Source: Streptomyces sp. I6
GTDB taxonomy: Bacteria > Actinomycetota > Actinomycetes > Streptomycetales > Streptomycetaceae
Direction of reading: 5' to 3'
DNA length: 64,000 nucleotides
NCBI GenBank assembly: GCA_003725745.1
Contig: RHDP01000001.1
Location: forward strand, 1 to 64,000
Both the position numbers and the translations under genes were made by a program. Positions 1-58,126 of the stretch are shown one piece after another. Every line of letters starts with the position of its first letter. The stretch's first letter is position 1. The notes under the pieces were generated by a model that saw nothing but the letters and a program-made list of their open reading frames with translations, was not told where the DNA came from and ran no database searches.

Positions 1-9
1 CCCGATCCC

Positions 10-919
10 TCACTGCCGCTCGTCGCCCCTTCGGGAGTCCGTTTCGATCGATCGGGTTGGCAACGTCCGGCCGCCGGTCGGATCTCGCACCGGAGTACGA
101 CGCAGGGGCTCACCGATCCTTTGCGGAGCGGCGACCGATCGGGCGACTCCGGTCACACCGGCCAGGGCACGCAGTTCCGTCAGCGTGCCGCGGTAGACAC
201 TACGGTCGACGTCATCCGGAATGCCCGGGTCTGCGCCTGATCGGTGTACTGCCAGAACGTCCATGTCTGATCCGTTCCGGGAAGTGGATGAGGTTTGGCA
301 CCCCAACTTGCGAGCCACTGCAGATGCCCCCTGAAAACCGCGGCATTCCCCGCCAGACAACTGACGACAAAGGAATACTCGGTGTACACGATCGGCTTGA
401 CGCCGAACGCCTCCTCGACGGCACGGAGAAAGATCGCGAGTTGACGGGCGTCGACACCGGGCGGGCAGGTGGGCCGGTGGTGCCTCCACCCGCTCTCCGC
501 ATCGAGAACTGGCGGCAGTTCCCCCGGATTCCGCCCGTGTAGCCGGCGGCGCGTGCCGTACGGACGAAGTGTGCAGCCTGAGCCTCGGCGTCCCCTGGGG
601 ATTGCGAGTCGAAGAAGTGGTAGGGGGCCCGGTAAAGACTCGTGCGAGACGCCCCGCCAAGTCCCTCGCAAACCACGGGTCCTCGTACTGCGTGCCTTGG
701 GTGGCCTTCATGAAGACGAAGGAGTTACGGGTCGCGACCCCGTCCCAGTCGATGGGCTCATCACCGTCCCGTGGTTGAACTCGCTGGTGTCCACCCTCTG
801 GGGCCCGGCGGGATCGAAGTCCCGGAAGTCACCCATATGGCGGAACAAGGGGCGGTCACCAGCACTGCGGCAATCACTACGGCGCTCACCGAGCGCCCGG
901 CGGATGCACGACGCGGCAT
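10..919 (-). CDS. Secreted GH25 lysozyme (muramidase), reading frame broken five times
   Basis: Glycoside hydrolase family 25 proteins cleave the MurNAc-GlcNAc bond of peptidoglycan outside the cell. The translation, pieced together over three frames, has an N-terminal signal peptide, the GVDTSEFN start of the barrel, FVFMKATQGT, YRAPYHFF, and PPVLDAES with the catalytic Asp/Glu pair. It ends in DRSVYRGTL. It is a paralogue of the intact GH25 gene at 50821-51759 and follows it along its length. Frame changes lie near 795, 745, 650, 520 and 230; each is repaired by one base at a G or C run. The repaired length is 304 residues, against 312 for the intact copy. Start chosen at MPRR by analogy with the intact copy. 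The family assignment is firm. Whether the gene is truly broken is doubtful; sequence error is the better explanation. Confidence 0.8.
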
Positions 920-1104
920 GATGCACTCTCCCATGGCGACGCCGGCACCGGCCGTGCTCCGCCAGTACGCATTTCCGGAGCCCGGGAAACACAAGGAAGG
1001 AGACCTGGATATGGCGGAATCGTATGCGGGCCGTTCCGGAGACGCACTTCGGCGGATGCCGCGCGGGGAATCGTATCGACGCGCTTTCCCTATCGCCCCG
1101 GAGC

Positions 1105-1140
1105 CCGCACCCGCACCCGCACCCGCACCCGCACCCGCAC
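1105..1140. repeat. Hexanucleotide array (CCGCAC)x6
   Basis: Six perfect copies of CCGCAC lie in the gap between the GH25 gene and the M1 peptidase. Such an array is prone to slippage. The rest of the 920-1270 gap holds no gene I can support. Confidence 0.9.
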
Positions 1141-1200
1141 CCGCGGATCATCCGTCCTCATCCCGTCCGCCGGACATCGCGTCCGCCTCACGCTCCCCGC

Positions 1201-1280: not shown

Positions 1281-2746
1281 TTCGGCGGCGGCGTCGCCTT
1301 CCAGTCCGGATGGTTCGGCATAGGCGGCGTCTCGGTCCCCTTGAGCCAGGACTCGAGAAACCCCTTCACTCCCTGCCCTGGAGCGATGCGATCGGCGTGC
1401 GCGATGTAGTCGTCCGTACTGGCGGACCCGCCCTCGTACACCGTGAGGAACGACCGTTCGATCTGCCTGAACTTGGCCTTCCCGACCTTCTGCTCCAGTG
1501 CGTACAGCACCAGGGGGCCTCCCCGGTAGACCTGCTCGCTGAACAGCGATTCCTTCGTGGGCCTGGCGACCGGACCGTACTGCGCACGGTAGACGTCACC
1601 GCTCCGGTAGAAGTCCGCCATCACCGACTCCATGGAGCCGTGCCTGCCGTCGTTGGTGGTCCAGCCCTGGGCGAACCGGTATGTGAGGCCGTAGTAGTTG
1701 GCGTGGCCCTCACTGATCCAGTTGTCCGCCCAGGTCTTCGGTGTGACACTTCCGCCGAACCATGAGTGCACGAGCTCGTGCATCATATGCGGGGCGACGC
1801 TCTCGACTGGGGTGGACGACAGATAGGAGGGATCGTAGACGGTGAGCGTGTGCGTTTCCAGGGCATGGAACCCGAACGGGACCTCTTCGTCCGTGTCGAG
1901 GGGCATCAGACCATACGCCTCCAGCGGAAACGGCCCCAGTTCTCCCACTGCCCACTTCATCTGCTCCACGGCCATGTCGAGTTGGCCGAACCGGTCGGCG
2001 GATCCCTCGGCAGGACGAGACTGATAGGCACCCCGTCGACCGTGCCTATCTCCTCCGTCTCATACCGGCCGACTGCGATCTGCACGAGTTCCGGTGCCAC
2101 CGGATGCACGGTCCCGTAGGTGTACGTCGTGTACGCGCCACGGGTCTCGGGGTTCTTCAGCGGAAGTCCGCTGGCTACGGCAACGGCATCACTGCCGCGG
2201 GTATCGAGACACGGAAGGTGAAGTCCGCCTTGTCCCAGGGAACGTCGTTGCACGGAAAAACCGTGTGCGCCTTGTCGGGTTGCGGGGCGAGAGCGAAGCC
2301 CTTTCCCGTGTCCACCCAGCCGCTGGCTCCGGAACTACGCGGGTCCACGTCGTACCGGACGTTGATCCGCATCACGTGATTCGGCGCCACCGAGGAAGCC
2401 GGAGAGATCTGCAGCTTCTTCTTCGCCAGGGTGAAACGGGCATCCTCCCCGTCCACCGCCACGGACTTCACGTGCATTTTCTGCGCGTCCAGCGAGAACT
2501 TCTGCAATTCGGCCGAAGAGCGCGCTGTGATCACCGCCTCCGCCTCGACGGGTACCTTCGGTTCTTCTGGACGGTACACAAAGTCAAGGTCATACGATTC
2601 CACCTCGTATCCGGGGTTACCGAGTCCAGGGAACACCGGATCAGCCGGAACCGGGGGTCTGCCGTCGTCACACCGATCGAAGCGATGAGCAGGGTCGCGG
2701 TGAACGCCGCCAGAAGACTCGTCCTGCATCCACCGATCCGGATCAT
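1271..2746 (-). CDS. Secreted M1-family zinc metallopeptidase, three frameshifts
   Basis: M1 (gluzincin) aminopeptidase-like enzyme, probably exported. The start at 2746 has the SD AGGGAGA and opens a signal peptide (MIRIGGCRTSLLAAF...). The frame then changes near 2655 into the N-terminal beta domain (GYEVESYDLDF). It changes again near 2195 and near 1995 into the catalytic part. The zinc site is HELVH followed 18 residues later by the third ligand in NWISEGHA, the exact HExxH-x18-E spacing of family M1. The usual GAMEN exopeptidase motif is not seen and may fall in a diverged stretch. Each frame change is repaired by one G, giving 492 residues. The stop codon lies inside a 10-bp repeat array. 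Confidence 0.85.
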
Positions 2747-3166
2747 CCCCGTCTCCCTGCGCCATAGACGACAGACCGCGCCCCGGCATTGTTTCGCCGA
2801 AGGTGACCGTGTGTGAGGAGGGTGCCCCGTGGGCGGAGAATTCTCGGGCCTCTCGACGGTAGAGCAGTGCGCGGCGTCAGATGAGGTGCATCGCGGGAGA
2901 GGCCGTGGGCTCAACGCTCCGGACAGTCGCCACCTTGCCCGGTCGTCATCACCGAAGAGCGGGACCGGGCCGCGGGCGAAGCGTCCCGGCATACCAGAAA
3001 AACGCTACCGGCAGCACCTGAATGCCGCAATCACAGCGATCTCCTCCGTCGGAGATCAGCGACTTCGCCGCAGTGCACGGGCGCCGGCCGATCAGGGACG
3101 CCTCCCTCACTCCGGCATCACGTCGGCCTCACGTCCTCCTCCCTGCCCCAGACGGCTTTGTGTGAT
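2747..3166. other. Intergenic region, no gene seen
   Basis: Spacer between the divergent M1 peptidase and the small membrane protein. The only structure noted is a short perfect hairpin, GATCTCC at 3038-3044 and GGAGATC at 3051-3057. It should hold the promoters of both neighbours, but I cannot pick out clear -35/-10 boxes. Confidence 0.5.
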
Positions 3167-3583: not shown

Positions 3584-5221
<1,638 letters not shown>

Positions 5222-9262: not shown

Positions 9263-10705
9263 TCAGCGGTGCCCTCCTCCATGGCGCTCCCCTCCCCGTG
9301 ACCGCGCCACGGAGGCGTTGAGGCAGGCCAGGAGCGTGCGGGCCTCCACGTTCAGGTAGTGGCCGTGCCGGGTGAGGGTCCTGAGCTGCGCCGGGGTGGC
9401 CCAGGTGTAGGCGGGGGCGGGTCGAGCGGGGCGTCGTCGGCTTCGACGACGAGGTACCGGCTCCTCGCGTTGAGGAAGCGCCCGCCCTCCTCGGAGAGGA
9501 CGGCCTGGTAGTGGATGTGCGACGGCGGGGCGTTGAGCACGGCGTCGAGGAACGGCGGGCGGTCCGCCGGGGCAGATGGGTGTAGTTGCCGGGTGTGCAC
9601 TGGACGGTCGGGCCAGCTCGACGGTGTCCAGGAAGCCGCCTTCGGCCCGGGCGTGCACCAGCACATGGGGTACTCCGTCGATCGCGCGCACGAGGAACGC
9701 GGCGACCCCCAGCCCCACGGGCTCGACCAACGGCTGGTCCCAGCTGACCACTTCGCGGTTGCCGGCCCGCACGGAGACGGCGACGACCCTGAAGTAGCGC
9801 CCGGCCTCGTGCTCGATGGCCTCGGCGCCGCGCTTCCAGCCGCGCACGCCGGCGAGCGGTATGCGTTCGGCGCACACGTCGTGGCGGGAGCGCTCGCCCG
9901 TGAACCAGGAGAGGAGTTGTGCGTCCGACAGCAGTGCGCCGGGGGACGTGTCCCGGTACGGCACGCACGACAGCACGGTCCTGGCGTTCATGTTGACCAT
10001 GTCGTCCTCGTGCAGCAGCTCGGCGATCTGGCCGAGGGTGAGCCAGCGGAAGTCGTCCAGCTCGGGGACGTCGCCGACGGTCTCCACGATCATGTTGCGG
10101 TTGGTCTTGCGGTAGAACCACGAGCCCTGTTCGGACTGGAGGACGTCGACGACGACGCGGTCGGGGTCGGGCCGGAAGAAGTGGTCGATGAGCGTGACGT
10201 CCGTACCCCGGTGGGCCCCGGTATAGTTGCTGCGGGTGGCCTGCACGGTCGGGGAGAGCTGGAGCAGGTTGGCGTTGCCCGGCTCCATCTTGGCCTGCAT
10301 CAGGAAGTGCAGCACCCCGTCGAACTCCTTGGCCAGGATCCCGAGGATGCCCACTTCGGGCTGTCTGACGACCGGCTGCTGCCACTCCCGGTACGGGCCG
10401 TCGCCGGAGGGCCCGTCGAGCTCCACCACATGCATGCCCTCGACGGTGAAGAACCGCCCGCTGCGGTGCACGAGATTGCCGGTGCCCGGCTCGAAGCGCC
10501 ACTGGCCCAGCTCCGCGAACGGTATCCGCTCCACGTGGAACACGTGGGCCCGGCGACGCTCGGCCAGCCAGGCGCGCACGTCCTCGGTCCGCACCCGGGC
10601 CCCGCGCCCGGTCGCGGCCGACAGGGCGATGCGGTCGGCCAACCGGCCGTCCTCGCGCGGGCGTACGGCCGGGACGGCGGGCGGTGGAACGATCCGAGTC
10701 GACAT
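9263..10705 (-). CDS. staJ: StaJ, NDP-hexose 2,3-dehydratase, three frameshifts
   Basis: Large NDP-hexose 2,3-dehydratase, starting 2-deoxygenation of the sugar. The family is built of two similar halves, and both are visible: RFFTVEGMHV, PEVGILGILAKEFDGVLHFLMQAKMEPGN and QATRSNYTGAHRG, then GRYFRVVAVSV, LGVAAFLVRAIDGVPHVLVHAR and QCTPGNYTHL. The start at 10705 has GAGGAGC upstream. Frame changes near 9610, 9565 and 9420 are each repaired by one base; the repaired protein has 481 residues. It starts 17 bp after staMA ends. Confidence 0.88.
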   Translation of the reverse strand: MSTRIVPPPAVPAVRPREDGRLADRIALSAATGRGARVRTEDVRAWLAERRRAHVFHVERIPFAELGQWRFEPGTGNLVHRSGRFFTVEGMHVVELDGPSGDGPYREWQQPVVRQPEVGILGILAKEFDGVLHFLMQAKMEPGNANLLQLSPTVQATRSNYTGAHRGTDVTLIDHFFRPDPDRVVVDVLQSEQGSWFYRKTNRNMIVETVGDVPELDDFRWLTLGQIAELLHEDDMVNMNARTVLSCVPYRDTSPGALLSDAQLLSWFTGERSRHDVCAERIPLAGVRGWKRGAEAIEHEAGRYFRVVAVSVRAGNREVVSWDQPLVEPVGLGVAAFLVRAIDGVPHVLVHARAEGGFLDTVELARPSSAHPATTPICPGGPPAVPRRRAQRPAVAHPLPGRPLRGGRALPQREEPVPRRRSRRRPARPAPAYTWATPAQLRTLTRHGHYLNVEARTLLACLNASVARSRGGERHGGGHR

Positions 10706-11592: not shown

Positions 11593-12851
11593 TCACGGAA
11601 GGTCGGACAGGTCGAGGACCAGCCGGGTCGGGCCGTGGAAGACCAGGTCGTCGGCGTACTCGACCCGGTGACGGCCGCGGCCGAGTCCGGGGATTTCGTC
11701 GAGCAGGGTCCTGAGGCCGATCTCGGCCTCGGCGCGGGCCAGCGTGGCGCCCAGGCAGTAGTGGATTCCGAGGCCGAAGCCCAGGTGCCGGTCGGCGGCG
11801 CGGTGGACGTCCGGGACGTCGGGGTCCGGGAAGCGCGCGGGGTCCCGGTTCGCCGAGCCCAGCAGGGCCACCACGCGGCTGCCGCGCGGCACGTCGTACC
11901 CGCCGAGGTGCGCGTCCTCGTACGCCCAGCGCGTCACCGCCTGCACCGGTGGGTCGTAGCGCATCAGTTCCTCGACCGCGGGCGGCGTCACCTCGGGCGT
12001 GGCACGCAGCTCCGCCAGGATCTCGGGGTGCGCCCGCAGGGCCAGCACGGCCTTGGCCAGGAAGTTGGTGGTGGTCTCGTGTCCGGCGGTGAGCAGATGG
12101 ACGCACGTCCCGACGATCCCGTCCACACTCAGCCGTGCGCCGGTGTCCCGGGCCCGGACGAGGAGGGTGAGCAGGTCGGCACCGCCGCCCCGCTCCGCCG
12201 GTCCACCTGCTGCCGGAAGTAGCGCGCGAAATCCCGGGAGGCCGCCTCGGCCCGGGCGTAACCGCCGGCGCCGCGTGATCGGGTGGTGCTGGCCTCCTGG
12301 AGGGCGACCGCGCCGGCGCGGAGCCATGCGCGGTCCTTTTCGGGGAGGCCGAGCAGTTCGGAGATGACGAGGACGGGGAAGGGCGCGGCGAAGCCCTCGA
12401 CGAGGTCTGCCTCGCGGTGCCCTCCCAGCCGTTCGACGAGTTCCTGCGCGAGCCGGGTGATGCGTGGCCGGAGATCGGTGACGATCGAGGGCGAGAACCG
12501 GGTGTTGAGCAGGGAGCGCAGTTCGGTGTGGCGCGGCGGGTCGAGGAAGACCAGCCAGTTCTCGACGATGGTCCGCAGGGCCCGGTGTTCGGCGGGGATC
12601 GGGACGGGGGCCGTGCGGGTGCCGGTGTCGCCGGACGCCACGCGCGCGCTGCGTCCGAACCGCCGGTCGGACAGGACGCGGACGACGTCGTCGTACGTGA
12701 AGAGGTAGAAGGTGTCCGGGCCGCCCGTGCCCGATGCGGTGCGATGGACCGGCGCGGCCTCCCGGTAGCGCCGGTACACGGGGTACGGGTTGCTGATGTC
12801 CTCCCCGTCCCAGCCCATGAGGTCGAACCGCGGCAGCGTCGCGCGGGGCAT
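11593..12851 (-). CDS. staP: StaP, cytochrome P450 for aryl-aryl coupling, one frameshift
   Basis: P450 of 419 residues after repair. StaP couples the two indole rings of chromopyrrolic acid oxidatively to make the indolocarbazole core. I-helix [12 protein letters not shown]-helix AVEELMR and the heme loop [15 protein letters not shown] are all present. One frame change near 12185 in a run of four G separates the N-terminal part ([23 protein letters not shown]) from the catalytic part; one G restores [13 protein letters not shown]. Neighbours are staD upstream (79-bp gap) and staMA downstream (43 bp). Distinguished from StaN (19366-20586) by its place next to staD. Confidence 0.88.
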
Positions 12852-12930: not shown

Positions 12931-15900
12931 CTAGCGGCCCGGCGGCCGGAAGTGGTCGGCCCAGAACGCGCTCATCTCGCCGACGCGCGCGGGCACGACG
13001 GGATGTTTGCCGCACTCCGCCGCGAGGTCGTCGAGGCGCCGGGCGATACCGCGCCGGGCCACGTCGGGGCGGGAGACGGCCATCGGCTCCTCGGGGAGTT
13101 CGAACGACGGTCCGGCGGTCATGCCCCGGCGCCCCGACGGCATGGTGACGAGCAGTTCCGCCAGCGGGCGCATCAGGCCCGTCATCATGTCTATCGCCGC
13201 GTTCATCAGGTCGGACCGCCGCAGGGCGGCGTCGGGGCACTCACCGAAGTGCTGGGCCATGAGCTGAAGCGCCATGAAGTAGGCGCGGTTGAACAGCTTC
13301 ATCACCGCCCGGGCGGCGGCATCGGTGACCGTCTCCATCGCCGGGTCGCCCGCACCGAGGGTCGGGTTCCGCAGGACCGGGTAGGCAGGGTTCCACCGTT
13401 CGGCACCCGGGTGCGGCCCGTCGGTCGGCGCGCTGCGGAGCAGCTCGGAGATCCGCAGGAACGCGTGGTAGTGGGAGGTCTCGCCGCCTCGCGGGCCGAG
13501 CACACCCCCCTCCCCTGCTCGGTGATGACGTCGATGGCGAACAACGCGCTGGCGAGGTCGTCGACTTCGAGCTGGTAGTCGGGGTGCGTCCGGTTGAGGG
13601 ACTTCCGGAGGAAGAGGTGGTGCTCACCGCCTCCCCTGCCCTGGTCCACCATGAAGAGGTCCGGGACGCTCTGCAGTCCCTCCCTGAGGTCCGCGTAGAG
13701 CTCGCTCAGCGACCCGTACGGGTGCCGTTCGTCGTACGCGGCAGGGCCGCCGGTCCGTCGCCGCGCCGTACCTCCCCGACAAGGCCCTCCGGACGCTCGA
13801 TCTGCACGAACCGCTCCACGCTGCCGGGCCCCAGCCGCTCCAAGGAGAAGTCCAGCGGGACCGCCAGCTCGTGGTTGACGGTGCGGAAGTCGACGCGAGG
13901 CACATGGAACGGTTCGCCCACCGCCATGAGGATGTTGTTGACGAGCAGGAAGTGGATCATCTCCTCGCGGGCGATGTCCAGCAGCATGCTGCGGATGCCC
14001 TCGTCGAGGGTCTCCCCGCCGTCACCGCAGGCGAGTCGAAGCTGCCCGGGCGTCCACAGTCCCCGCCGCACGTACTCGGCGCCGGCGCCGTGGGTGGGCA
14101 CCGAGTAGGCGGCGTACAGGTACTGGAGCATGACGGCCAGTTCGATCGCGGCGGCGTCGCGCAGCACCTTGACCAGTCGGTCCCGGGTGGTGGTCCTGCG
14201 GCTTCTGCGACTGGTGGCCCGCACCGCCGACAGGACTTCGTCGGGCTTCTGCTGGGACCGGAGGAACCTCAGCAGGAGCTGCGCCTTCGGTTCGGAAAGC
14301 TCCCGGGTGGGCGGCATGTAGTAGGTCTTCGACTTGTTGAGCGGATCGCACATCTGCCAGATCAGCTTGGCGTACGTCTCGACCTTGCAGCGGTCCGCGA
14401 GGCTGAAGACCTCCGCCTTCATGAACGAGTACATGTGCTCGTAGAACGCGAAGACCTCTTCGTACACCAGCTCGAAGGTCACCTCGTCCTGGCCCGTCCC
14501 GGCCAGCCGCCAGTCGTCGGGCAGCACCCGCACCGCCAGATACCCGGCGCCGGGCCAGTAGCCGAGCGTGTCGTCGTGGTCGTAGCCCAGCGTGGCGGAG
14601 CCGGGCCGGTCCGGGTCGCACGGCAGGTCGTCCGGGCCGGTGGACAGCAGGATCCGGGCCGTCCCGGACGCCGCGCCCCGCAGGGTGAACCAGCCCCGGC
14701 CCGCGTCATCCGTGCCCAGAACACACGTACCCGACCATCCGCCGTCACCGTCCCGCCGTCCGGCACGCACCCGGACCACGTCGACGTCCGAGCACCGCGC
14801 GCCGGGGGACGCCGCGACCGGGTCACGCGGCAGGGCACGGGGGTTGAAGAACTGCCGCACACCGATCCCGCCGACGGCGGCCGGACGGCCCCGCACGAAG
14901 GACCGCACCAGCACCTCGACGTCGTGGTCCGCGTCGTCGGCGTCCCGGGGGTGCTCCAGGATGAGGGCCGCGTCGTCGGCCTGGACGTTGACCTCCTTCT
15001 CGCGCAGGTGCACCACGGGGCCGCCGGGCCCGGTCCCGACCAGGTGCAGCGCCTCCTCGGCGGCCTCCCTCGCCGGCATCTCGACGGGGACCGTCACCAG
15101 GCCGCCGGCGAGGGCGTACGTCTCCCCTAGATAGCTCTGCCGGGGCACCCGGGCGACCAGTCGACCGCTGTCCGCCGTCCGCAGTTCGAGATCGCCGATG
15201 TCGAGGGGCACCGGCTCGGACCGGCCGTCCCGCACCGGGCCGGAGGCGGGCATCGCGGTGATCATGTTGAGCACGGCGTGGTCGTCCGTCAGCTCGACGG
15301 TGAGGTTGTGCGGCCCGCCGGTCCCGGGGCGGCTCGGGACGAGCAGACGGCCCGCCGGGTAGGTGCGCGGCTCGCCCGGCCGCCAGGGAGCGATGGTGCC
15401 GCGCAGCCGCCAGCGGCCGGGCCGGTCGGGGACCTCGGGTGCGGACGGATGGCTCAGCGAGAACTGCACGACCAGCCCTCCCGCTTCCCCGCGGGCCACC
15501 GTGTCCCGCAGGAGCCGTACGGCCGGTGAGACGGCGGCCTCGTCGAGCCAGGTCGGTTCGCCGTCCCCGGCCACGACGAACTGGTGGACCACGGAACGGC
15601 GCAGCCGCTTGGCCAGCCAGTGCTCCCCGACGTCCCGGACGTGGTGGGTGTTGTGCCACCTCGGGGGGTGGAAGCCGTGGACGGCGCCGGTGGACATGTA
15701 GCCGACGTCGTGGGAGCGGCCGTCGCGCCCGAAGCAGAACTGTCCGACCATGAGGGTCGTCGTCCAGTCGGAGGCCGGGTCGACGTCGAAGACCCGTGCC
15801 CGGTTGACCGTGGTGCCGAGGTACTCGTTGTAGTGCCCCCACATGTCGACGGCGCGCCCGATCACCGGGTCCCCGGTGTCCAGCTCGCCCGCGCGGCACT

Positions 15901-16195
15901 CGACTCCGACGATCCGCGCGTCGACGGCGAAGTGCCCGTTGCCGGCGAAGTCCTCGCCCTTGGCCGCGCTGAAGGGGCCGTCGGGCGCCGGACGGCCGGT
16001 GCCGTCGTACCGCGGCCCGATCAGGTCGAGGTGGTCGTGGTACTCGCCCGGTGGACGGTGGGGCGGGAAGGGCTGCCCGTCGGCGGTGAGTGCCGTGTTG
16101 GTGGCCAGGTCGACGAGTCCGCTTCGGGCGCCGGTGGGAGCATGGGTCGTGGCGGTTCCGGAGAAGTGCAGCCGGGGCAGGTCGAAGACGCTCAC
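12931..16195 (-). CDS. staD: StaD, chromopyrrolic acid synthase, two frameshifts
   Basis: RebD/VioB-type enzyme that dimerises two indole-3-pyruvate imine units into chromopyrrolic acid. It begins [16 protein letters not shown], typical of the family, and carries the C-terminal ferritin-like region rich in His and Glu ([29 protein letters not shown]). GTG 16195 overlaps the staO stop in a GTGA, so translation is probably coupled. Frames change near 13740 and at 13501-13513; the second is a run of six G where seven are needed. Repaired length is 1088 residues. The two breaks fall in a well-conserved C-terminal domain with no loss of residues, which argues for sequence error. Confidence 0.9.
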
Positions 16196-17706
16196 GCCGA
16201 CCGGTCCGAGCGGCTCGGTCGGGAGGCGGCGAACACGCGCCTGGCACGCGGCTCGTACCACTCGATCTCGTGCGCGGCGTCGATCGCCGACTCGATGGCG
16301 CCCTCGATCCACGCGGGCTTCGACGAGCAGTGCTCGCCGGCGAAGAAGAGGCCCCGCTGCGGCCGGGCGGCCTCGCGACGTTCGGCCTCGCGGAGGGCGG
16401 CCTCCTGGCCCCATCGGACCGTGGCCGCTCCCCAGGACCATCGGCGTGCGCCCCAGGCCCGGCCCGCCACGCCCAGGATCATGCCCGGTCTGCGCAACTC
16501 CGGGTGCATCACGCTGAGTTCCCTGGTGACGAGGGCGTTCCGCTCGGCCTCGCCGAGCCGGGCGAGGGCGTCGGCGTCCGGGCCGATGGTGTAGCTGGCG
16601 AGCAGCACCGCGCCGAGCGCGGGGTCGCCGTCGGCGGGCGGGTAGTACGTCTGCCTGACGTGGCCGCCGGTGAAGGAGGCGCCCCCGCTGATGCCGTCCT
16701 TCTCCCAGAAGGCCTCGCGGCAGTGGAAGGCGATCTTCGTTGCCGGCCAGTACTTCGTCTGGTGGACGATATCCAGTTTGTCCTGGTCGAAGCCGGTCAG
16801 CCGCATCCTCCGGAGTACGGTGAACGGAATGGTGCACACCACGTAGTCACAGGTCCTGGTGACCGTCGTGACGCCCTGGCGGATCCGCAGGGCCACTGCG
16901 TCGTCGCGCACGTCGATGCCCACGACCTCCTGGCCCAGCGAGATCCTGCCGCGGATCCGTGCGGCGAGCCGCTGGGGCAGCGCGTCCATGCCGTCCCGCA
17001 GCCGCACGATGCTGGAGCTGGTCTCGTCGAGCACATCGTCGAGGAAGCGCTCCAGCCGGAGCGGGCAGGACGACCGTATCCGTGGGTGGTCGGCGAAGAA
17101 GGCGTGCAGGTCGATCCTGTTGTGCGCGGTACCGCACCGGTACGGCGTCAGGTCGATGTGGTCGACGAGGTCGAGCAGTTCCACGCCGATGTCGTTGTGC
17201 AGCCCGTCGTAGAACTGGCGGGGTGCGATGGCCCTGATGCTGGCGTCCAGCCAGGCCCCGAACAGCAGGGTGTCCAGCCGGTAGTGCGCGCTCGGCAGTC
17301 CGGCGGCGAAATCGTCGACCAGGGTGTCGTGCGCCTCGCGCACACGAAGGTATCCGGTGGGACCGGGCAGATAGGCGGCGTCGTCGGAGAACAGCGTCCG
17401 GAACTCGCGGACCTGGTTCTGCAGGCCGAGTTCGGCGATGTAGTGCATGGTCAGCCGGTGCCCGGCGGGGATGCGCATCGCGCCGAGCTCGGCGAACGGC
17501 CCGGCCTCAGCGGCACCGGCGAAGCGGTGCGTGTGAATCCGGCCGCCCACCTCGCGGCTTCCCTCGATGATCTGGACGTCATGTCCGAGGCGTTCCAGTT
17601 CATAGGCCGTCACCAGACCGGCGATGCCGGCGCCGATGACGGTCACCTTCTTCGGTCCACCGATGGCGCCGTCCGGACCGTCACTGTCCTGCAAGGGTGC
17701 CGTCAC
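16192..17706 (-). CDS. staO: StaO, FAD-dependent L-tryptophan oxidase
   Basis: Flavin monoamine oxidase of 504 residues, uninterrupted. It oxidises L-tryptophan to the imine of indole-3-pyruvate, the first committed step. The N-terminal dinucleotide fold is VTVIGAGIAGLVTAYEL near residues 21-37, followed by EVGGRIHT. The C-terminal FAD contact is GLFFAGEHCSSKPAWIEGAI. The GTG start at 17706 has a strong GGAGGAA site. It is the first gene of the minus-strand operon and overlaps staD by 4 bp. Confidence 0.92.
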   Translation of the reverse strand: MTAPLQDSDGPDGAIGGPKKVTVIGAGIAGLVTAYELERLGHDVQIIEGSREVGGRIHTHRFAGAAEAGPFAELGAMRIPAGHRLTMHYIAELGLQNQVREFRTLFSDDAAYLPGPTGYLRVREAHDTLVDDFAAGLPSAHYRLDTLLFGAWLDASIRAIAPRQFYDGLHNDIGVELLDLVDHIDLTPYRCGTAHNRIDLHAFFADHPRIRSSCPLRLERFLDDVLDETSSSIVRLRDGMDALPQRLAARIRGRISLGQEVVGIDVRDDAVALRIRQGVTTVTRTCDYVVCTIPFTVLRRMRLTGFDQDKLDIVHQTKYWPATKIAFHCREAFWEKDGISGGASFTGGHVRQTYYPPADGDPALGAVLLASYTIGPDADALARLGEAERNALVTRELSVMHPELRRPGMILGVAGRAWGARRWSWGAATVRWGQEAALREAERREAARPQRGLFFAGEHCSSKPAWIEGAIESAIDAAHEIEWYEPRARRVFAASRPSRSDRSA

Positions 17707-34831: not shown

Positions 34832-35609
34832 CACGATCTCCACCTCTCGGCGTCCGTCCTGAAATGAAGTTGCTCCGAGACTGCCGCAGAATCGCTTCCG
34901 GCGCCCATGGATTCTTCGGCGCCTGTGTCTGTGCGGGTCAACGGCGGTCACACCCGGGTCGCACTCACCACGCCCCGTGCCCGCGGGAGCCGGGCTCGCC
35001 CGGGGAAGCGGGGCTCGCCCGGGGAAGCGGGTGGGCCCCGCGTCCGCACCGCAGTTCCCGACTGCGCAAGGGGCCGGACCGGCGCCGCGGTGGGCGGTTC
35101 GGACGGGTGCGGGCGGACTCTCCGCGGCGAGGTCGCCCTCGGTGAGGGCGTGCAGGCGCGCATGGCCGGGCGCGGTCATCGTGCCGGTCTCCTTGCAGGC
35201 TTCGGCACTTCGAAGACCAGCCGGTGGCCGTTGGTCCGTGCGGGCCTCACCCTGACGCCGGAGCAGATCCCCGAATCAGATCGAACCCGTACAGAACAGC
35301 CCTGGATGCAACCGCCGGTGCACCCGTCGCACCGTCCAGCGGTATCCGTCCGGAGTCCTCAGCCCTGTCCGGGAGGCGTGACGGACAGGGCTCCATGCGC
35401 CCGGATCGCATACCACTTTTCCCTGACATGCCGTCACCAAATTCCTCACGCTCAGTGTTGTCATCTGAATGAAACATTCGGCTACCTAGCGGTAACCCGT
35501 CGGCCTGTGCCACCTTTTCCGACGCCACCGGCCGGTGTTCTTCCCCATCCCCCACCCACACCGCGCTCCCGCACGGGGCGAGGTGTGGCCGAACGCTGGA
35601 GACAGCCCT
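34832..35609. other. Intergenic region with possible gene fragments and the lipase promoter
   Basis: On the minus strand an ORF end (ARTNGHRLVFEVPKP...) overlaps a small ORF start (MTAPGHARLHALTEGDL) at 35179 as ATGA, which looks like the remains of two genes; neither can be named. A 19-bp direct repeat (GGCTCGCCCGGGGAAGCGG) occurs twice near 34990-35030. Upstream of the lipase the sequence turns AT-rich, with TTGTCA at 35458-35463 and the dyad GAATG-AAA-CATTC at 35467-35479, a likely promoter/operator. Confidence 0.4.
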
Positions 35610-36280
35610 ATGAAGCGCTCCGTTCGCACCGTGGCCCTCGGCGCCGTGGCCGCCGCCATCACTCCTCTCCTCGCGGCGTCGCCCGCACAGGCCGACACCC
35701 GCAACCCGGTCATCTTCGTCCACGGCCTGAGCAGCTCGGCCAGCACCTGGAACACCTGGGTGGGCAAGTTCAAGGCCGACGGCTACGACTCCTCGGAGCT
35801 GTTCACCTGGTCCTACGACTGGAAGCAGTCGAACAAGACCACGGCGTCCCAACTCGCCGCCAAGGTCGCCCAGGTGCGCGCCGCGACCGGCGCGGCGAAG
35901 GTCGATATCGTCACCCATTCCATGGGAGCCATCAACGCCCGCTGGTACGTGAAGTTCAACGGCGGCACCTCGTACGTCGACGACTTCGTCTCGGTGGCCG
36001 GCGTCAACCACGGCACGGACATCAGCGTCCTGTGCGCCTTCTACACCTCGTGCTGGGAGATGGTCGCCGGCAGCAGCTTCCTCAAGACCCTGAACTCCGG
36101 TGACGAGACCCCGGCAGCGTCAACTACCTGGCGCTGTACTCGACGTGCGACGCCCTGATCAACCCGGACTCGTCGGCGAAACTGAACGGCGCGACGAACG
36201 TGTCCGTCGGCTGCATCAGCCACAACAACATGAACGACAGCGCGAGCAACTACACCAAGGTGCGGGACTTCATCGCCTGA
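35610..36280 (+). CDS. Secreted lipase (alpha/beta hydrolase, class 2), one frameshift
   Basis: Extracellular lipase/esterase. Signal peptide [20 protein letters not shown]... ending SPAQA-D, then [19 protein letters not shown] and the nucleophile elbow [12 protein letters not shown]. Cys pairs in [12 protein letters not shown] and SVGC suggest disulfides. The frame is lost near 36110 at CCCCGG; one added G gives [16 protein letters not shown] and runs to the stop at 36280, a 223-residue protein. ATG 35610 has GGAGA upstream. A hairpin terminator follows at 36336-36366. Confidence 0.85.
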
Positions 36281-37075: not shown

Positions 37076-37789
37076 CTACGGGGTCGAGGATCTCGATGGT
37101 CCGGAGGCGGTCCTGGTCGCGGACGGCGTCGTGAAGAGCTCCGCGAGGGTGTCGCTGTCCGGGGTGGCCGACGGGTCGGGCAGCCGTCCGAGTGCGGCGG
37201 CTCCGAAGGCCACCGAGGACGCGGTGTTCGTGGCGTAGGCGTCCAGGTCGTGCGGCCATGTCTCGGGCGGCTGCTGTGCGATCAGGGCCACCGATCCGTG
37301 CAGTCCGGCGCAGATGGTGCGGGTCAGCTCTGCGACGTCGCCGCGCAGAGCGCCGGACGTGACACACGGCTCGACCGCTTCGGCGAGGTAGCGGAAGCAG
37401 TCAGCGGCCACCTGCCGGCTCGCCTCGGTGGCCCGACCGTCCATGACGAGGCGGTACCGCAGGGGGTGCTCGAGTCCGAAGGCGATGTAGGTGACGCAGC
37501 GGCGATGGAGTGCCGAGAACGGGTCGTCGACGCCGGAGGCGGCTTCGCTCATGGATCGGCCCAGTTCGGCCCAGACTCCCAGGCACACGGCGTGCAGCAG
37601 TTCGAGTCTGCTCGCGAAGTGCAGGTACACCGAGGGCGTGGTGACTCCCACCGCGGCGGCGACCCCGCGTACGGTCACCGCGTCCTCCCCTTCGGCGTCC
37701 AGGATCCGCTCCGCTGCGGCGAGGAGTTCGGTGCGCAGACGCGCTCCTTCCCCGGGCCGTGCCCGCTTGCGCCCGCCGGCGCCGGTCAT
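37076..37789 (-). CDS. TetR-family regulator
   Basis: 237 residues. The HTH is AAAVGVTTPSVYLHFASRLELL near residues 46-67. The C-terminal ligand domain reads FGLEHPLRYRLVMDGR and AELTRTICAGLHGSVALIAQ (WHG-type). Its ATG overlaps the stop of the alcohol dehydrogenase gene (ATGA), so the two are one operon and the regulator probably controls that operon. Confidence 0.87.
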   Translation of the reverse strand: MTGAGGRKRARPGEGARLRTELLAAAERILDAEGEDAVTVRGVAAAVGVTTPSVYLHFASRLELLHAVCLGVWAELGRSMSEAASGVDDPFSALHRRCVTYIAFGLEHPLRYRLVMDGRATEASRQVAADCFRYLAEAVEPCVTSGALRGDVAELTRTICAGLHGSVALIAQQPPETWPHDLDAYATNTASSVAFGAAALGRLPDPSATPDSDTLAELFTTPSATRTASGPSRSSTP

Positions 37790-38807
37790 CGGCGGCTCCC
37801 GGCGAACACGGGCTTGCCCGCGGGAGGATCGAGCAGGACATCGGGGGCGTCGTCGTAGCTGTAGGGCCCGGCGATGAGCGGGCTCGGGTCGAGGGCCCCG
37901 GAGGCGATCAGCTGCAGGACCTCGGGGGCGAAGGGGGTGATGTGCGGAGGCCCCGTCACGAAGGTGACTCCGCTGGAGTAGAGCTCCAGGTAGGGCAACG
38001 CGGGTTCGGCGAAGAACACCGACCGGGACACGCAGGTCCCTCCGGGCCGGGCGGAGACCAGCGCGCAGCGCAGTCCCTTCGGATGGGCCGAAGCGTCCAC
38101 GGTCAGGTCGTAGGGGCCCTGGATCCGCTCGGAGTAGGAATCGATCAGCGTCGCCCTGGCGCCCAGGGCGGCCGCCTGCTCCACGGAGCGGGGATCGCGG
38201 TCGACGTAGTGCACCGCGGTGCTGCCGAGTGCCGTGCAGGCGAGGACCGTCAGCAGTCCGAACGTGGGGGTCCCCCGACGACCAGTACGGCGGCGTCCGG
38301 ATCGGCGTGGAGCGTGGGGCTGACCGTACGGTAGGCGTCGACCAGATTGTCCGAACAGGACGCCGCCGTCACCGGGTCCAGGCCGGGCGGCAGCGGTACG
38401 AGGCTGTGCTCGGCCCACGGCACGCGGACCAGTTCGTCGAAGAGCCCTCCCCAGGAGCCGCCCGCGGGGGTGCCGTAGCTCGCGAAGGGCGGGACGGCGC
38501 TGCACGCGCCCGGCATCGACCGGCTGCACTCCGCGCACACACCGCAGTTGACGTGGCACGGGATGACGACCCGGTCGCCCGGCTTCAGACCGCTGACGGC
38601 GCTGCCGACGTCCACGACCTCGCCGACGGCCTCGTGCCCCAGGGCGTAGGGCGGTTCGAGCGGGCTCGCGTGCACCAGATGGCGGTCCAGGTCGCACACG
38701 GCGGATGCGACGGGGCGCACGAGAGCGTCCGTGGCCTCACGGAGTGAGACGGGCGGCAGGTCTCTCCATTCGACCCGCCGCGGACCCAGCACAGTCAGAC
38801 TTCGCAT
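37786..38807 (-). CDS. Zinc-dependent alcohol dehydrogenase-like oxidoreductase, one frameshift
   Basis: Medium-chain dehydrogenase. GHEAVGEVVDVGSAVSGL and PGDRVVIPCHVNCGVCAECS, with four Cys of the structural zinc site, lie in the first half. The Rossmann half follows a frame change near 38275 at a run of five G: one added G joins AAVLVVGG to GTPTFGLLTVLACTALG. The repaired protein has 340 residues. The substrate is unknown. ATG 38807 has only a weak SD. It is in an operon with the TetR gene. Confidence 0.82.
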
Positions 38808-39324
38808 CGCGATCACCCGAGCCCTTCGGCAGCAGCGGGGCCTCGCCCCGTCCCGTGACACGCCGCGCTCCTGCCGCAAGCACGGCGGGGCGCGGTCACC
38901 GATGGCTAGGTTGACATGTCAGGCTGACGGTGACAAGTAGCCGGTCGCCCGACCGCGCGGGGACGGCCGGCGGCAGCGCGCACGACCCCGGGGAAGGCGC
39001 CTCGCCCTTCGCGTCCCGGTTCCCGCGGCTCCGTGCGGTGCCGGGCCATCGGGAGGATCCACAGGCTCCCGGAGGCAGCCCGGCCCTTTGGTACCCTCTG
39101 GTAGTCCGTCCGAGGGGGTCCGTGATGCCGGCTCAAGCGTCCGCACCGCCCGTGCCGGTGGACGGCCGGGGATCCACCGGGCCCGGCGATCGCCCGGTCG
39201 TCCGATCGGGGCGGGGACGACTCAGGGAGAGAAGGGAGTGGCCGTGTTCCGCAACGGCGAACCGCTGCCCTCCCACGCGCCGACCGCCCGTCCGCGGGAT
39301 CCGCTGAAGAAGCTGGGCTGAGAC
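38808..39324. promoter_or_regulatory. Divergent control region with palindrome TGACATGTCA
   Basis: The gap between the dehydrogenase (minus) and the duplicated tetR (plus). A perfect 10-bp palindrome, TGACATGTCA, at 38912-38921 overlaps a -35-like TTGACA (38911-38916). On the minus strand TTGTCA lies about 20 bp from CAACCT. It may be an operator for the dehydrogenase-linked TetR. Confidence 0.4.
39244..39321 (+). CDS. Chimeric 25-residue ORF ahead of the duplicated tetR
   Basis: GTG 39244 has the SD AAGGGAG and reads to TGA 39321, 3 bp before the tetR ATG. Its last residues, LKKLG, come from the 3' end of the DJ-1 gene carried along in the inverted duplication. Probably an accident of the duplication, but well placed to affect tetR translation. 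Confidence 0.35.
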   Translation: MFRNGEPLPSHAPTARPRDPLKKLG

Positions 39325-42136: not shown

Positions 42137-42813
42137 AGCTCCCGCGCAGCGTCGAGGGACGACGCGGGGTTCTGGCCGGTGACCAGGTTGCGGTCGACGA
42201 CGACGTTCGGCGCCCAGGCGTCGCCTTCCTGGAAGTGCGCGCCGATCCCGGTGAGACGGTCCTGGAGCAGCCACGGGGCCTTGTCGGCGAAACCGGCCTG
42301 CTCCTCCTCGACGTTGGTGAAGCCGGTCACCTGGAAGCCGGCGAAGACGTTGGTGCCGTGCTCGTCGACGGCGGGGAGCATGGCGGCCGGGCCGTGGCAC
42401 ACGATGCCGAGGGGCTTACCCGATCGCATGGCGGACACCAGCAGGTGGGCGGAGTCCTTGTCCACCGCCAGGTCCTCCATCGGGCCGTGGCCGCCGGGGT
42501 AGTAGACAGCCGCGTAGTCGTCCAGGGTTACGTCCTCGATGCGGATCGGGTTCCGCAGCTGGGCGATGTCGGCGAGCCGCTGCCGGAACCTGTCGGCGTT
42601 CTCCTGCCCGCCGGCCATCTCCGGGGCGAGGCTGCGCTGATCCACGGTCGGGGTCACGCCACCCGGCGTGGCGACGGTGATCTCGTGCCCTGCTGCCGTG
42701 AACTCGTCGAACGGGGCCACGACCTCCTCGGCCCAGTAGCCGGTCGGGTGCTGCGTGCCGTCCTTGAGGGTCCAGGACTGGGCCCCGCTCACAACAAAAA
42801 GGATCTTCGACAT
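42118..42813 (-). CDS. DJ-1/PfpI-family (type 1 glutamine amidotransferase-like) protein
   Basis: 231 residues, uninterrupted. The nucleophile Cys lies in GKPLGIVCHGPAAML, the supporting Glu in PGGHGPMEDL, and the fold start is SKILFVVSG with WTLKDG. It resembles Hsp31-like chaperone/glyoxalase III members, which act on damaged proteins or methylglyoxal. ATG 42813 has AGAGGAAGG. It is first in an operon with tetR (3-bp gap). Confidence 0.87.
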   Translation of the reverse strand: MSKILFVVSGAQSWTLKDGTQHPTGYWAEEVVAPFDEFTAAGHEITVATPGGVTPTVDQRSLAPEMAGGQENADRFRQRLADIAQLRNPIRIEDVTLDDYAAVYYPGGHGPMEDLAVDKDSAHLLVSAMRSGKPLGIVCHGPAAMLPAVDEHGTNVFAGFQVTGFTNVEEEQAGFADKAPWLLQDRLTGIGAHFQEGDAWAPNVVVDRNLVTGQNPASSLDAARELLKKLG

Positions 42814-49420: not shown

Positions 49421-50637
49421 TCATGGGGCGGAAGCCTTCAGGAGCCCCCGGCCGCCCGCGAGCACCCCGGCGAGCAGCAGAGCGGATCCGATCTGGAAGA
49501 CCGAGCGGAGACCGAGCGCATGGGCGGTGAGCCCTCCGGCTGCCGCTCCCAGTGTGGCCGCGGCGCGCACGAGGGTCCGGTGCGTCATGGTCACCCGCCC
49601 CATGTACTCCAGGGGCACGCAGTCCTGGCGTACCGTCGTCACGGTGACCGTCCAGAGGGTCATCGACGCCCCGTAGACGGCCGTGAAGCAGCCCGCCACC
49701 CAGCCGGAGTCCGACAGGCCGATGCCCAGCGCGGCGGCGGAGGCCGCGACCATGGCCGCGTACAGGATCCGCCCCCTGCCCAGGAGGAAGACCAGTCGCC
49801 CCTCCAGCAGGGACGCCACCAGACTGCCCAGCCCGTACGCCGCCGCCAGGGCGCCGTAGAGGCTGGCGCTCAGGCCCAGGTCGTGCCTGACGAACAGGAC
49901 ACCGATCGCGAGCTGCGCCGCCCCGACGAAATTGCACAGCGCGGACAGCAGGGCGATCCGGCGCAGCAGCAGCTGGTGCCACAGCAGGCCGAACCCGGCG
50001 GCCGCCTGCCGGTAGACGTCCGCCGGAGCGCGGGGGCCCGGCTCCGTCGCCGTCCGGAAACTCCCCTTGAGCAGGCCGATCAGGGCGGCCGCGACCGCGA
50101 AGGACAACGCGTCGAAGGTGAACGGGAGCGCCGGGTCGACGTCGTACAGCACCGCGCCCAAGGGATTGCCGACCACCATCCCGGCCACCACGGATCCGCC
50201 CTTGAGTGCCGCGTTGCCCCGGTCCCGTCCGGCCGGCGGCACGATGGCGGGCACGATCCCCCCCAGGCTCCGTAATAGAACTTCTGGCCGAGGTCCAGCG
50301 CCGCGGCGACCGCCATGAGGAGGAGGAGCGTCGCGTCCCCCAGGGCGACGGCGACGGCCAGCGCGCCGGCCACCGCGGCACGGATCATGTTCACGGTGTA
50401 CATCAGACGGCGCCGGTCCACCCGGTCGGCGATCACTCCGGCCGACAGCATGACGAGCGGCCAGGGCAGTTGACCGGCGAGGAACACCAGGGAGACCTTG
50501 CGGGGGTCCGACGTGAGGTCGGCGGCGAGCAGGGGCAGCGCCACGTAGCGCATGCCGCTGCCGAGGCCCGAGACGACCACGGAGGTCCAGAACAGCCCGA
50601 ACCCCGGACCGTAGCCGGGATCACGTCCCCACTTCAC
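49421..50637 (-). CDS. MFS transporter, one frameshift
   Basis: 405 residues after repair, with about 12 helices. The MFS loop GVIADRVDRRRLMYTV lies after helix 2. At 50257-50263 a run of seven G (minus strand) ends the first part at YYGAWGG; eight are needed to join IVPAIVPPAGRDRGN and the rest (GMVVGNPLGAVLYDVD). GTG 50637 has GGAGGAGGGG about 13 bp upstream. Likely an efflux permease of the enterobactin/macrolide type. Confidence 0.84.
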
Positions 50638-50820
50638 GGCTCTGCAACCCCTCCTCCGCGGGCCGGTGGCGAGCTGCGACTGTAGTGCGTCAGCCTCTCG
50701 GTCGCGGCGTTGCCGCGCTGAGGTCTCACCCCGCGGGATGCGGCCGCGGCGCGGTCGGAACGCGCCCCGGGTCGCGGCCACGGCTCACGGCCGGTGCCCA
50801 CCGGGCGCCCGGCACCGCTG

Positions 50821-54473: not shown

Positions 54474-54564
54474 GGCCGCACCACGGGCTGTGCCACCGGC
54501 CGCCCGGCCGGCGGCACAGCCCACGCGGAGGGCCCCGCGTCCACGGGCCGCGGACGTGCGGTTC

Positions 54565-55014
54565 TCAGCCGTGCGCGCGCCCCGGTCCCCCGCCCCGGCC
54601 TCCGGGCAGCACACCCTCCTTCGCGGCCTCGAGGACGGCGTCCGCCTGCTCCTGGGTGAGCTTCCCCTCCGACACCGCCTTCTCCAGGCGTTCCGAGAGC
54701 CGCTCCTCGCGCTCTGCCTTGCGCTCCTGCTGCTTCTCGCCGCGGATCTTCTCCAGCGCCGCCTTCACCTTGTCCTCGGACACGCCGAGTTCCTCCGCGA
54801 GGGCGGCCGCCAGCTCGTCCTGGCGCTCCTCCATGCGCTCCTTGCGCGACTCACGCCGTTCCTCCCGCGGATCGGCCGTGTCACCGGAGGATGCGGCCGA
54901 GTCCGTCGCGGAGGCCGGCGTGCCGTCCTCCGCGAGGGCCACCGCCGGGAACAGCAGTCCGATGCTCGCGACTCCTGCGGCGGCAAGACCCACTCGAGCT
55001 CTCTTGGTCACCAT
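54565..55014 (-). CDS. Secreted charged coiled-coil protein of unknown function
   Basis: 149 residues: a signal peptide (MVTKRARVGLAAAGVASIGL... VALA-ED), then a long run of charged helices (REERRESRKERMEERQDELA, ELGVSEDKVKAALEKI, KLTQEQADAVLEAAKEG) and a glycine-rich end. No family recognised with certainty. ATG 55014 has GGAGGAA. Divergent from the LAL regulator over 305 bp, in which no clear promoter boxes are seen. Confidence 0.75.
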   Translation of the reverse strand: MVTKRARVGLAAAGVASIGLLFPAVALAEDGTPASATDSAASSGDTADPREERRESRKERMEERQDELAAALAEELGVSEDKVKAALEKIRGEKQQERKAEREERLSERLEKAVSEGKLTQEQADAVLEAAKEGVLPGGRGGGPGRAHG

Positions 55015-55319
55015 GGAACGTTCCTCCGTATCCGGGAGCTGTGTCGTGGTCGAGCATCGTGCGCCTGCCTGTGGCAGGGCTGGGAACAGGATGAGAATCC
55101 TCTGGGAACCATGCCGCGGGCCCGCACCGGTACGTCCCGTCGCGCCGGTCACCCGGGGGCACGTCGCCTCGGCGGCCGTGTTCGGCACCGGCCGGGGCTC
55201 GGGTTCCGCCCCGCCGCCGGCCGGCATCCCGGCCGGTCGGTCCGCACCGGCGATGGGGCAGACTTGGGCGACACCACGGCCGGAGCGGCGGGGCGACCGA
55301 CAGTGAGGGGGAAGGCAGC

Positions 55320-58126
55320 ATGAGCACGCCGGTCTGGGAGGGCAGACTGCGACGGACTCTCGTATCGGAGACCGCCGAGCCGGTGCTCGTTCTGGCGGCG
55401 GGAGCGGCCGGTACCGGGAAGAGCCACCTCGTGCGCCGTCTCGCCGCTCTCCCCGAGGCCGCCCATGCCGAAGTGAGGACGTGGGTCTGCGGCGAGGAAC
55501 GCGCTGCACCGGAACTCGCGGGTGACGGGCCGGTCCTGCTGCTGGTGGACGATCTGCACCGGGCGGACGCCGCCGAACTCGGCGCACTTCGCCGGCTGCT
55601 GGAGCGGTCCCGGCCCCCGCACGCCACCGTGCTGCTGTACCGCCCCGAGGAACTGCCCCGGCCCGGACTGCCGCTGGGCACACCGCCGGTGCGCTATCCG
55701 CGAGAGCTGCTCGTCCTCGAGCACCGGGTCAGCCCCTGGGCCACCGAGCAGGTGCAGCGGACCGCGGCGACCGCCCTCGGCGAGCGCTGCACACCGGAGG
55801 CCGTGGAGCGGCTGCACGCGCAGTCCGGCGGGGTCGCGCAGGTGGTCGTCGACCTGCTCGCGGTGCTGCGGGAGAACGACCTGCCGCGGTACACCGCCGC
55901 CGACGTCGACGGTGCGGGTGTGCCCGTTCGCCTCGCCGAACTGGCGCTGGGCCGGTTGGCCTCGCTGCCCGCCTCGCAGAGGGCCGTGGTGTGGGCCGCA
56001 GCGGTGCTGGGCGAGCCGGCGACGCGGGAGGAACTGCTGGCGGTCGCCGCGGGAGCGGTGCCCCGCCGGCCGCCTGGGGGCGCCCCGCGGACAGGGCCGG
56101 GCGGAGCCGGGCACTCGACGATGCGCTGGTCGCGGCACTCGACGCGGCCGTCCTCGCCGAGTACCCCGGCCGCCGGTACGGGTTGTTCGTCCCGCTCGCG
56201 GCCCGCGCCGTGCGGCGGGTGCTGCCCGGTCCCGTACGGCGGGAGCTGCACGCGAGAGCCGCCGACGTGCTGGTGCGCAGGCAGCCCGTGCCGTGGACGG
56301 CGCTCGCGGGGCACCGCCGGGAGGCCGGCCGGATGCGGGCCTGGCTGCGCGCCGTGGAGCAGGCCGCCGCGCTGGCCACCGGCGCCGGAGACCACCAGCA
56401 CGCCATCACGTTGCTGGAGCAGGCCCTCGCGTCCCCCGACATACCCCGGGACGCCCGGGCCGAGCTGGCGCCGCTGCTGGCTGACATCGCTGTCAACGGG
56501 CTGCGTTCGGATCAGACCGTCGAGGTGCTGTCGCAGATCGTGGAGGACGAGAGCCTTCCCGCCGTGCTGCGCGGCGAGATCCGCCTCGACCTCGGGCTGC
56601 TGCTGTGCAACCAGGTCGGGATGGGCGGCACCGGCTGGACCGAGTTGGAGCGGGCCGCCGCCGAACTCCGCAGCGAACGACCCGGATTGTCCGCCCGCGC
56701 CATGTCGGCCCTCGCCATGCCGTACTGGCCGGGCTCCTCCATCGACGTCCACCGCGCCTGGCTCGAGGGTGCGGCGGTGGCCGCGGAGGACAGCGGGGAC
56801 GAGGTCGTCCGCACGGCGGTGCGGGCCAACCGCGCCGGACTGGCCATGAGTTGCGGGGACCCTGAGGGCTGGGACCTGCTGAAGTCGCTGCCCACCGACC
56901 ACCCTGACCCCGGCATCCGCCGGCACGCGGCCCGCGGGCTGTGCAACGCGGCCGATTCGGCGGTGTGGCTCGGCCACTTCGAAGGGGCCGAGGACCTGCT
57001 GCGCGAGGGGCTCGAGCTGTCGGCCCGCAGCGGCGCCCCGTACACCGAGCACACCGCCCTGGGTGCGAGGCTGCTGCTGGAGTGGTTCACCGGGCGCTGG
57101 ACCGGACTGGCCGAGCGCTGCGAGGAGTTCGTCGCCGCGACCGCCGACATGCCGGTCATCAGTGCGGATGCCCGCATGGTCCGCGGAATGCTCGCTCTCT
57201 CCCAGGGCGACTGGGGCGCCTCGCTGTCATGGCTGGCGGGCCCGGACGCGTCGTCGGCCGAGCACGCCGCCGCCCCGCTCGCCGCCGCCACGTCCGGCGC
57301 CCTGGTCCGGTTGGCGCTGGCCCGCCAGGACGTGACCGCGGCGGCCGAGGAGTCCAGGAGCGCCTGGAGGAAGGCCGCGGCGAAGGGCGTGTGGGTGTGG
57401 GCGGCGGAACTGGTCCCCTGGGCCGTCGAGGCGGTGGCCCGGGCGGGTGACGCGGAAGGCGCCCGTGCCATGCTCGAGGAGCTGTCGTCCGGCCTGGCCG
57501 AGGTCGACGCGCCGTCCGCGACCGCCGCGTTGAGCTGGGGCCGGGCGGTGCTGGCCGAGGTGGAAGGCCACCCGCTGGAAGCCGTACCCCTGTACCGGGA
57601 GGCCGCGGCCGTGTTCGATCGCGCGCCGCGTCCCTACGCGCAGGCGCTGACCGCCGAGGGTGCGGCGCGCTGCACGCTCGCGGCCGTGGCGGCAGGCGGC
57701 CGGGCAGCGGCCGAGCGGCAGGGGGAGGCGGTCGTGGACGCCTCCCGCGCCGCCGACGAACTGGCGGGCTGCGCCACGCGGTTCACCGAGTTGGGGGCGG
57801 TGTGGGACGCCGCGCGCGCCCGCGCCGAACTCCGCCGCCATCAGCCGGCCAAGGAAGGCCGTCCGCCGGGGCGCCCCGCGTACGGCGGCCTGCTCTCCCC
57901 GCGCGAACGGGAGGTCGCCGAACTCGCGTCGGCCGGGCTCACCAACAAGGAGATCGCGGCGACGCTGCATCTGTCGCCGCGGACGGTCGAGCAGCATGTC
58001 GCCCGCGCCATGCGGAAGCTGGGGACGCCCTCGCGCCAGGAACTCGCCGAGCGGCGGGAGCCAGCCGGTCCGGAGGCGCCGGAGCGGATGACCGGCGCTC
58101 CGGTCGGCACAGACGGCACGGAGTGA
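55320..58126 (+). CDS. LAL-family (LuxR/MalT-type) regulator, one frameshift
   Basis: About 935 residues after repair. Walker A GAAGTGKSHLVRRL near residues 28-41, Walker B VLLLVDDLHRAD, a long helical region, and a C-terminal HTH (LSPREREVAELASAGLTNKE, HLSPRTVEQHVARAMRKLG). The frame is lost near 56085 in a run of five G; one more G joins VPRRPPGG to RPADRAGRSRALDDAL. ATG 55320 has GGGGAAGG. It is a second large regulator of the StaR type in the window, but no biosynthetic cluster lies next to it. Confidence 0.87.

What the first reader, a model, noticed from the sequence alone, without database searches (positions are those of the whole stretch)
1..58126. At least 22 frameshifts in 11 genes, all repaired by one added base
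GH25 (5), M1 (3), staC (3), staJ (3), staD (2), and one each in staMA, staP, the lipase, the alcohol dehydrogenase, the MFS transporter at 49421 and the LAL regulator at 55320. In each case I could restore conserved sequence by adding one base, nearly always G or C at a G or C run (for example 6 to 7 G at 13508, 7 to 8 G at 50260). All repaired lengths become multiples of three. Real decay would show insertions and deletions of all sizes plus stop codons.
Basis: seen in the sequence. Interest (0 to 1): 0.75.

Follow-up and report, generated by a model that had tools for sequence, protein, structure and literature searches.

The report
Genome-wide assembly errors breaking genes
The broken genes in this stretch of a Streptomyces-like chromosome are almost certainly sequencing mistakes, single dropped bases that occur across this assembly and even cut its RNA polymerase beta gene into three frames, so this is an ordinary data-quality problem and not biology.

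Summary
The frameshifts are in the deposited sequence. ADH and MFS are each one family split over two frames; a reference-free scan flags the lipase; a third M1 site is weak; a fifth GH25 site was not found.

The cause is not local. The two-contig assembly scores 87.4% complete. In the core, 21 of 73 genes carry shifts, 24 losses and 2 gains in 79 kb; the same pipeline finds 1 loss in 71-73 kb in each of two relatives. Hit genes include rpoB (only copy found, three frames), ribosomal L3 and L15, purH and pcrA, which a live cell cannot all lack. In the core 21 of 24 losses touch a G/C run of 4 or more; in the window 10-11 of 18 do.

The parts
37..792 (-). GH25 family glycosyl hydrolase gene, first copy, broken by about 4 one-base losses
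   Evidence: DNA comparison with second copy at 51.0-51.7 kb
1283..3105 (-). M1 family peptidase gene, broken by 2 (perhaps 3) one-base losses
   Evidence: Pfam PF01433; homologues; alignments
3590..5219 (-). staC (name recalled from the staurosporine cluster), 3 one-base losses; open in relatives L078, L086 and others
9287..10703 (-). staJ, NDP-hexose 2,3-dehydratase gene, 3 one-base losses that together restore the frame
   Evidence: Pfam PF03559
10726..11565 (-). staMA (name recalled), 1 one-base loss
11596..12849 (-). staP (name recalled), 1 one-base loss within the gene
12934..16367 (-). staD, 2 one-base losses
   Evidence: Pfam PF12902 in part
35496..36277 (+). class 2 lipase gene, probably 1 one-base loss
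   Evidence: Pfam Lipase_2 truncated at 165 of 219; reference-free scan near 36.1 kb
37789..38918 (-). alcohol dehydrogenase gene split over two frames (ADH_N and ADH_zinc_N)
49424..50781 (-). MFS transporter gene split over two frames
54719..58057 (+). LAL-type regulator gene, 1 one-base loss
16195..17704 (-). staO, amine oxidase gene, intact (internal control)
   Evidence: 0 shifts with references L075 and L077

Best explanation
The frameshifts are consensus errors of an assembly that was not, or not well enough, corrected at short runs: single bases, mostly in G/C runs, were dropped. They occur throughout the assembly (chromosome, second contig, essential genes) and are denser in the first 14 kb of contig 1, probably because read depth falls at a contig end. 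The organism's genes are most likely whole. Shown: the losses, their direction, their spread into genes that cannot be lost, their absence at this rate from relatives run through the same pipelines. Inferred: long-read origin and low depth at the end, since no reads were available.
For: Assembly in 2 contigs with completeness 87.42%. Core test with reference genes open in three relatives: 15 of 84 genes shifted in this genome against 0 of 77 in G034; controls G005 2 of 76, G015 1 of 75. Frame-aware core test: 26 events in 79,014 nt, 24 losses and 2 gains, 21 of 73 genes; controls 1 loss and 3 gains in 71,496 nt and 1 loss and 6 gains in 72,672 nt. Ten of the 21 hit genes were named: rpoB, L3, L15, purH, a folD-type gene, pcrA, succinate-CoA ligase alpha, succinic semialdehyde dehydrogenase, NAD(P)H-hydrate epimerase/dehydratase, alanine racemase. 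rpoB found only as three adjacent pieces in three frames, 97-99% identical to the relative's protein, one PF00562 match in the genome. 21 of 24 core losses touch a G/C run of 4 or more. Window: 17 firm sites, all losses. Second contig: 30 losses to 1 gain. Precedent: Streptomyces PacBio-only assemblies needed 70-335 corrections, the vast majority single-base insertions in homopolymers (PMC6923854, passages).
Against: No reads were available. About half of the window sites, and none of the three M1 sites, lie at a G/C run of 4 or more. The clustering before 14 kb is only inferred to be low depth; the other end of the contig is not clearly enriched (0.62 per kb in the last 20 kb against 0.53 in the 100 kb before). 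The reference-free scan has a high background on chromosome ends: one finished relative, G009, scores 0.588 per kb, more than the window's 0.374. The run-length spectrum of the genome is not visibly depleted.
Confidence: 0.96

Rival explanations
1. Mixed case: the assembly is error-rich, but the two terminal genes (GH25 copy 1 and M1) are genuine pseudogenes at a chromosome end, where decay is common.
For: These two genes hold 6-7 of the 18 aligned window sites within 3 kb, four or five of these not at a G/C run of 4 or more; their codon-position GC contrast is weaker than in the sta genes (third-position GC 0.75-0.81 against 0.91-0.94); GH25 copy 1 differs from copy 2 nearly as much at codon positions 1 and 2 as at 3 (0.21, 0.24, 0.32).
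Against: No in-frame stop in 236 and 530 aligned codons, no supported insertion; sta genes just inside have the same kind of losses; core essential genes too. Their references are only about 46-47% identical, so site placement is rough.
Confidence: 0.1
2. Real decay of the whole region: the staurosporine cluster and neighbours are pseudogenes.
For: At least eight genes in the window have broken frames.
Against: No stops in 4,655 aligned codons and one-base losses only; the same losses in rpoB, L3 and L15; third-position GC stays at 0.91-0.94 over the broken sta genes; other genes of the same cluster are open.
Confidence: 0.02
3. Programmed or tolerated frameshifting: runs slip during transcription or translation and full proteins are made.
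For: Many sites are at short G/C runs.
Against: The same genes are open in one frame in relatives, for example staD in 10 of 11 and staP in 10 of 11 other cluster loci; no site is shared; runs lengths are ordinary for the genus; up to three sites in one gene.
Confidence: 0.01
4. Hypermutable or phase-variable strain with slippage at runs.
For: Loss bias and run association.
Against: The polymerase beta subunit is hit twice with no other copy found; gains almost absent, whereas slippage gives both.
Confidence: 0.01

Closest known systems
Homopolymer indels in long-read-only Streptomyces assemblies (PMC6923854; passages seen)
   Same: High-GC Streptomyces; corrections were mostly single added bases in G/C runs; judged by broken against whole protein matches.
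   Different: Those PacBio-only assemblies held 70-335 differences each; the core rate here (0.22-0.33 per kb coding) implies on the order of 1,500 over 7 Mb, an extrapolation.
Gene-fragmenting errors in long-read drafts (Kastor, PMC12007338; passages seen)
   Same: Mostly false deletions, commonest at runs of four to five, with some non-run deletions; low completeness score despite few contigs.
   Different: There A/T runs dominated in a 59% GC genome; here G/C runs.
Nanopore consensus homopolymer indels before R10.4 (PMC9262707; passages seen)
   Same: Indels in homopolymers that cause frameshifts and fragmented gene calls.
   Different: The platform of this assembly is unknown to me.

Membership tests
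Long-read consensus indel artefact | Spread over the whole assembly, essential genes included | tested here: met
Long-read consensus indel artefact | One direction: one-base losses far outnumber gains | tested here: met
   core 24 to 2; window 17 to 0 firm
Long-read consensus indel artefact | Sites at homopolymers | tested here: inconclusive
   core met, 21 of 24; window 10-11 of 18, enriched but not general
Long-read consensus indel artefact | Low marker completeness in a nearly closed assembly | tested here: met
   2 contigs, 87.42%; most listed relatives score 98-100
Long-read consensus indel artefact | Disappears in accurate reads | not testable with these tools
   no reads held
Pseudogenes (real decay) | In-frame stops and shifts of mixed size and sign | tested here: not met
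   0 stops in 4,655 codons, one-base losses only; the aligner penalises stops and knows only one-base shifts, so a two-base loss would show as a gain
Pseudogenes (real decay) | Confined to dispensable genes | tested here: not met
   rpoB, L3, L15 hit
Programmed frameshifting | Site conserved in orthologues | tested here: not met
   orthologues open in one frame

The most novel reading that the evidence does not exclude
The genes nearest the chromosome end (GH25 copy 1 and M1) are truly broken, and the terminal 14 kb is a zone of real, loss-biased small-indel mutation lying under a background of assembly errors.
Probability: 0.05. Interest if true: 0.4.

Novelty: not a real feature. Interest (0 to 1): 0.06.

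Why it matters
As biology it does not. As a caution it does: gene counts, pseudogene calls and any statement that the staurosporine cluster is dead would be wrong if taken from this assembly, and other frame-based oddities from the same genome should be checked for base-dropping first.

Tried and rejected
Plain tblastn of sta references gave only 5 frame switches in 23 reference ORFs (some of them antisense, one switch counted twice that way) and missed staJ altogether, because its three losses add up to a whole codon; the frame-aware aligner replaced it. Control cluster loci in the same call: 4 switches in 11 loci (about 272 kb of matched coding sequence), two of them in the same staMA reference ORF that also breaks in the window.

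Shifts not counted: those from over-long reference ORFs or poor references, e.g. upstream of staP at 12.9 kb (2 of 4 references), upstream of staO (2 of 4), staR N-terminus (1 of 4), GH18 N-terminus (2 of 4, at different places), TetR start (2 of 4, insertion), GH25 copy 2 (1 of 4, insertion), all. In the core list the two gains and two of the losses lie near the start of over-long ORFs (positions 57, 21, 12 and 17 of the proteins) and may not be coding; this is my reading, from expected protein lengths that I recall.

G-run depletion as a sign of lost bases was rejected after comparison with relatives. A codon-usage scan without references was trained on four relatives; it is noisy on chromosome ends (G009 ends 34 losses and 16 gains, 0.588 per kb; G005 ends 18 and 3; G015 ends 9 and 11), missed the GH25 and M1 sites and gave window calls near 9.3, 16.2, 37.8 and 64.0 kb that nothing else supports. 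It is used only for direction and for the lipase. An attempt to see terminal repeats gave one 162-bp match only.

Full report
The setting. The window is bases 1-64000 of contig 1 (6.94 Mb) of a two-contig, 7.05-Mb assembly with a completeness of 87.42%. I take the organism to be Streptomyces or close to it, by inference: 12 of the 18 loci found with the StaO protein are in Streptomyces records. The staurosporine-type cluster runs from about 3.6 to 26 kb; Pfam finds the sugar, dehydratase, amine oxidase, glycosyltransferase and regulator genes. Sta gene names are recalled from the known cluster.

The observation. I aligned open reading frames of relatives to the window with a protein-to-DNA aligner that allows one-base shifts. 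These 17 firm sites are all losses of one base. The first-choice references together align 4,655 codons with no in-frame stop (the aligner penalises stops). ADH and MFS show one protein family in two overlapping frames. The lipase is likely. So 17 of 22 are firm, 2 are supported by split families, 2 are weak or likely, and 1 was not found. Other genes are open: staMB, staE, staI, staK, staO, staG, staN, staA, staB, staR, GH18, the DJ-1 gene, the ferric reductase, the class III aminotransferase and the subtilase show no shift with their best references (for staR and GH18 one and two of four references place one at the very N-terminus).

The decisive test: is it local? I took 400 kb around rpoB from this genome and 200 kb from each of four relatives. 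With reference genes open in G006, G015 and G005, 15 of 84 genes are frame-switched in this genome and 0 of 77 in G034; leave-one-out controls give 2 of 76 (G005) and 1 of 75 (G015). With the frame-aware aligner and the near relative G034 as reference, 73 genes (79,014 nt) hold 24 losses and 2 gains in 21 genes. The same pipeline on two relatives gives 1 loss and 3 gains in 71,496 nt, and 1 loss and 6 gains in 72,672 nt. NCBIfam names for ten of the 21 genes include rpoB, ribosomal proteins L3 and L15, purH, pcrA and alanine racemase. Searching the whole assembly with the relative's RpoB returns three adjacent pieces in three frames and nothing else, and PF00562 has one match. L3 likewise comes back as two pieces in two frames. 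A growing cell cannot lack these proteins (established knowledge), so these shifts are not in the organism.

Context. In the core, 21 of 24 losses leave a G/C run of 4 or more touching the gap. Many fall where G034 itself has no long run; the simplest reading, my inference, is that this genome had a run of five or more there and one base was dropped. In the window the link is weaker: 10-11 of 18 sites, 21 of 39 site-by-reference rows against 7.7 expected. The M1 sites and one each in GH25, staC, staJ and LAL are not at such runs. The run-length spectrum of the assembly is close to that of relatives, so most runs are right.

Unevenness. The reference-free scan gives 11 events in 10.8 kb of coding sequence there against 8 in 37.3 kb for the rest (p 0.0009). 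That scan is noisy on chromosome ends: a finished relative, G009, scores higher (0.588 per kb) than the window (0.374). Falling read depth at a contig end would explain the crowding, but I could not see reads, and the far end of the contig is only slightly raised (0.62 against 0.53 per kb). Direction in the scan: window 17 losses to 1 gain, second contig 30 to 1, five mid-chromosome stretches 27 to 1, core 82 to 20; cores of four relatives 4 to 7, 6 to 11, 6 to 12 and 7 to 5.

Literature (passages seen only). PacBio-only Streptomyces assemblies needed 70-335 corrections, the vast majority single-base insertions in homopolymers (PMC6923854). In a long-read draft most indel errors were false deletions, commonest at runs of four to five, with a few elsewhere (PMC12007338). 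Nanopore consensus before R10.4 kept homopolymer indels that break gene calls (PMC9262707).

Conclusion. What stays open is whether the two outermost genes are in addition real pseudogenes.

Noticed in passing
39293-39873 and 41566-42146: A perfect 581-bp inverted repeat, each arm carrying a TetR-family regulator gene.
   Followed up: no
158-812 and 50993-51651: Two GH25 copies, 74% identical in DNA, 50 kb apart; the first broken, the second open.
   Followed up: partly
30813-30974: A 162-bp stretch with a 93% match near the other end of the same contig (6847357-6847518); no longer match between the window and the last 120 kb, so no terminal inverted repeat is seen there.
   Followed up: partly
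L186 (contig 1, 1.00-1.02 Mb): The reference-free scan is high here (11 losses in 16.1 kb of coding sequence), so the error density may vary along the chromosome.
   Followed up: no
unnamed relative G103: A one-contig genome listed at 78% complete, possibly with the same kind of errors.
   Followed up: no
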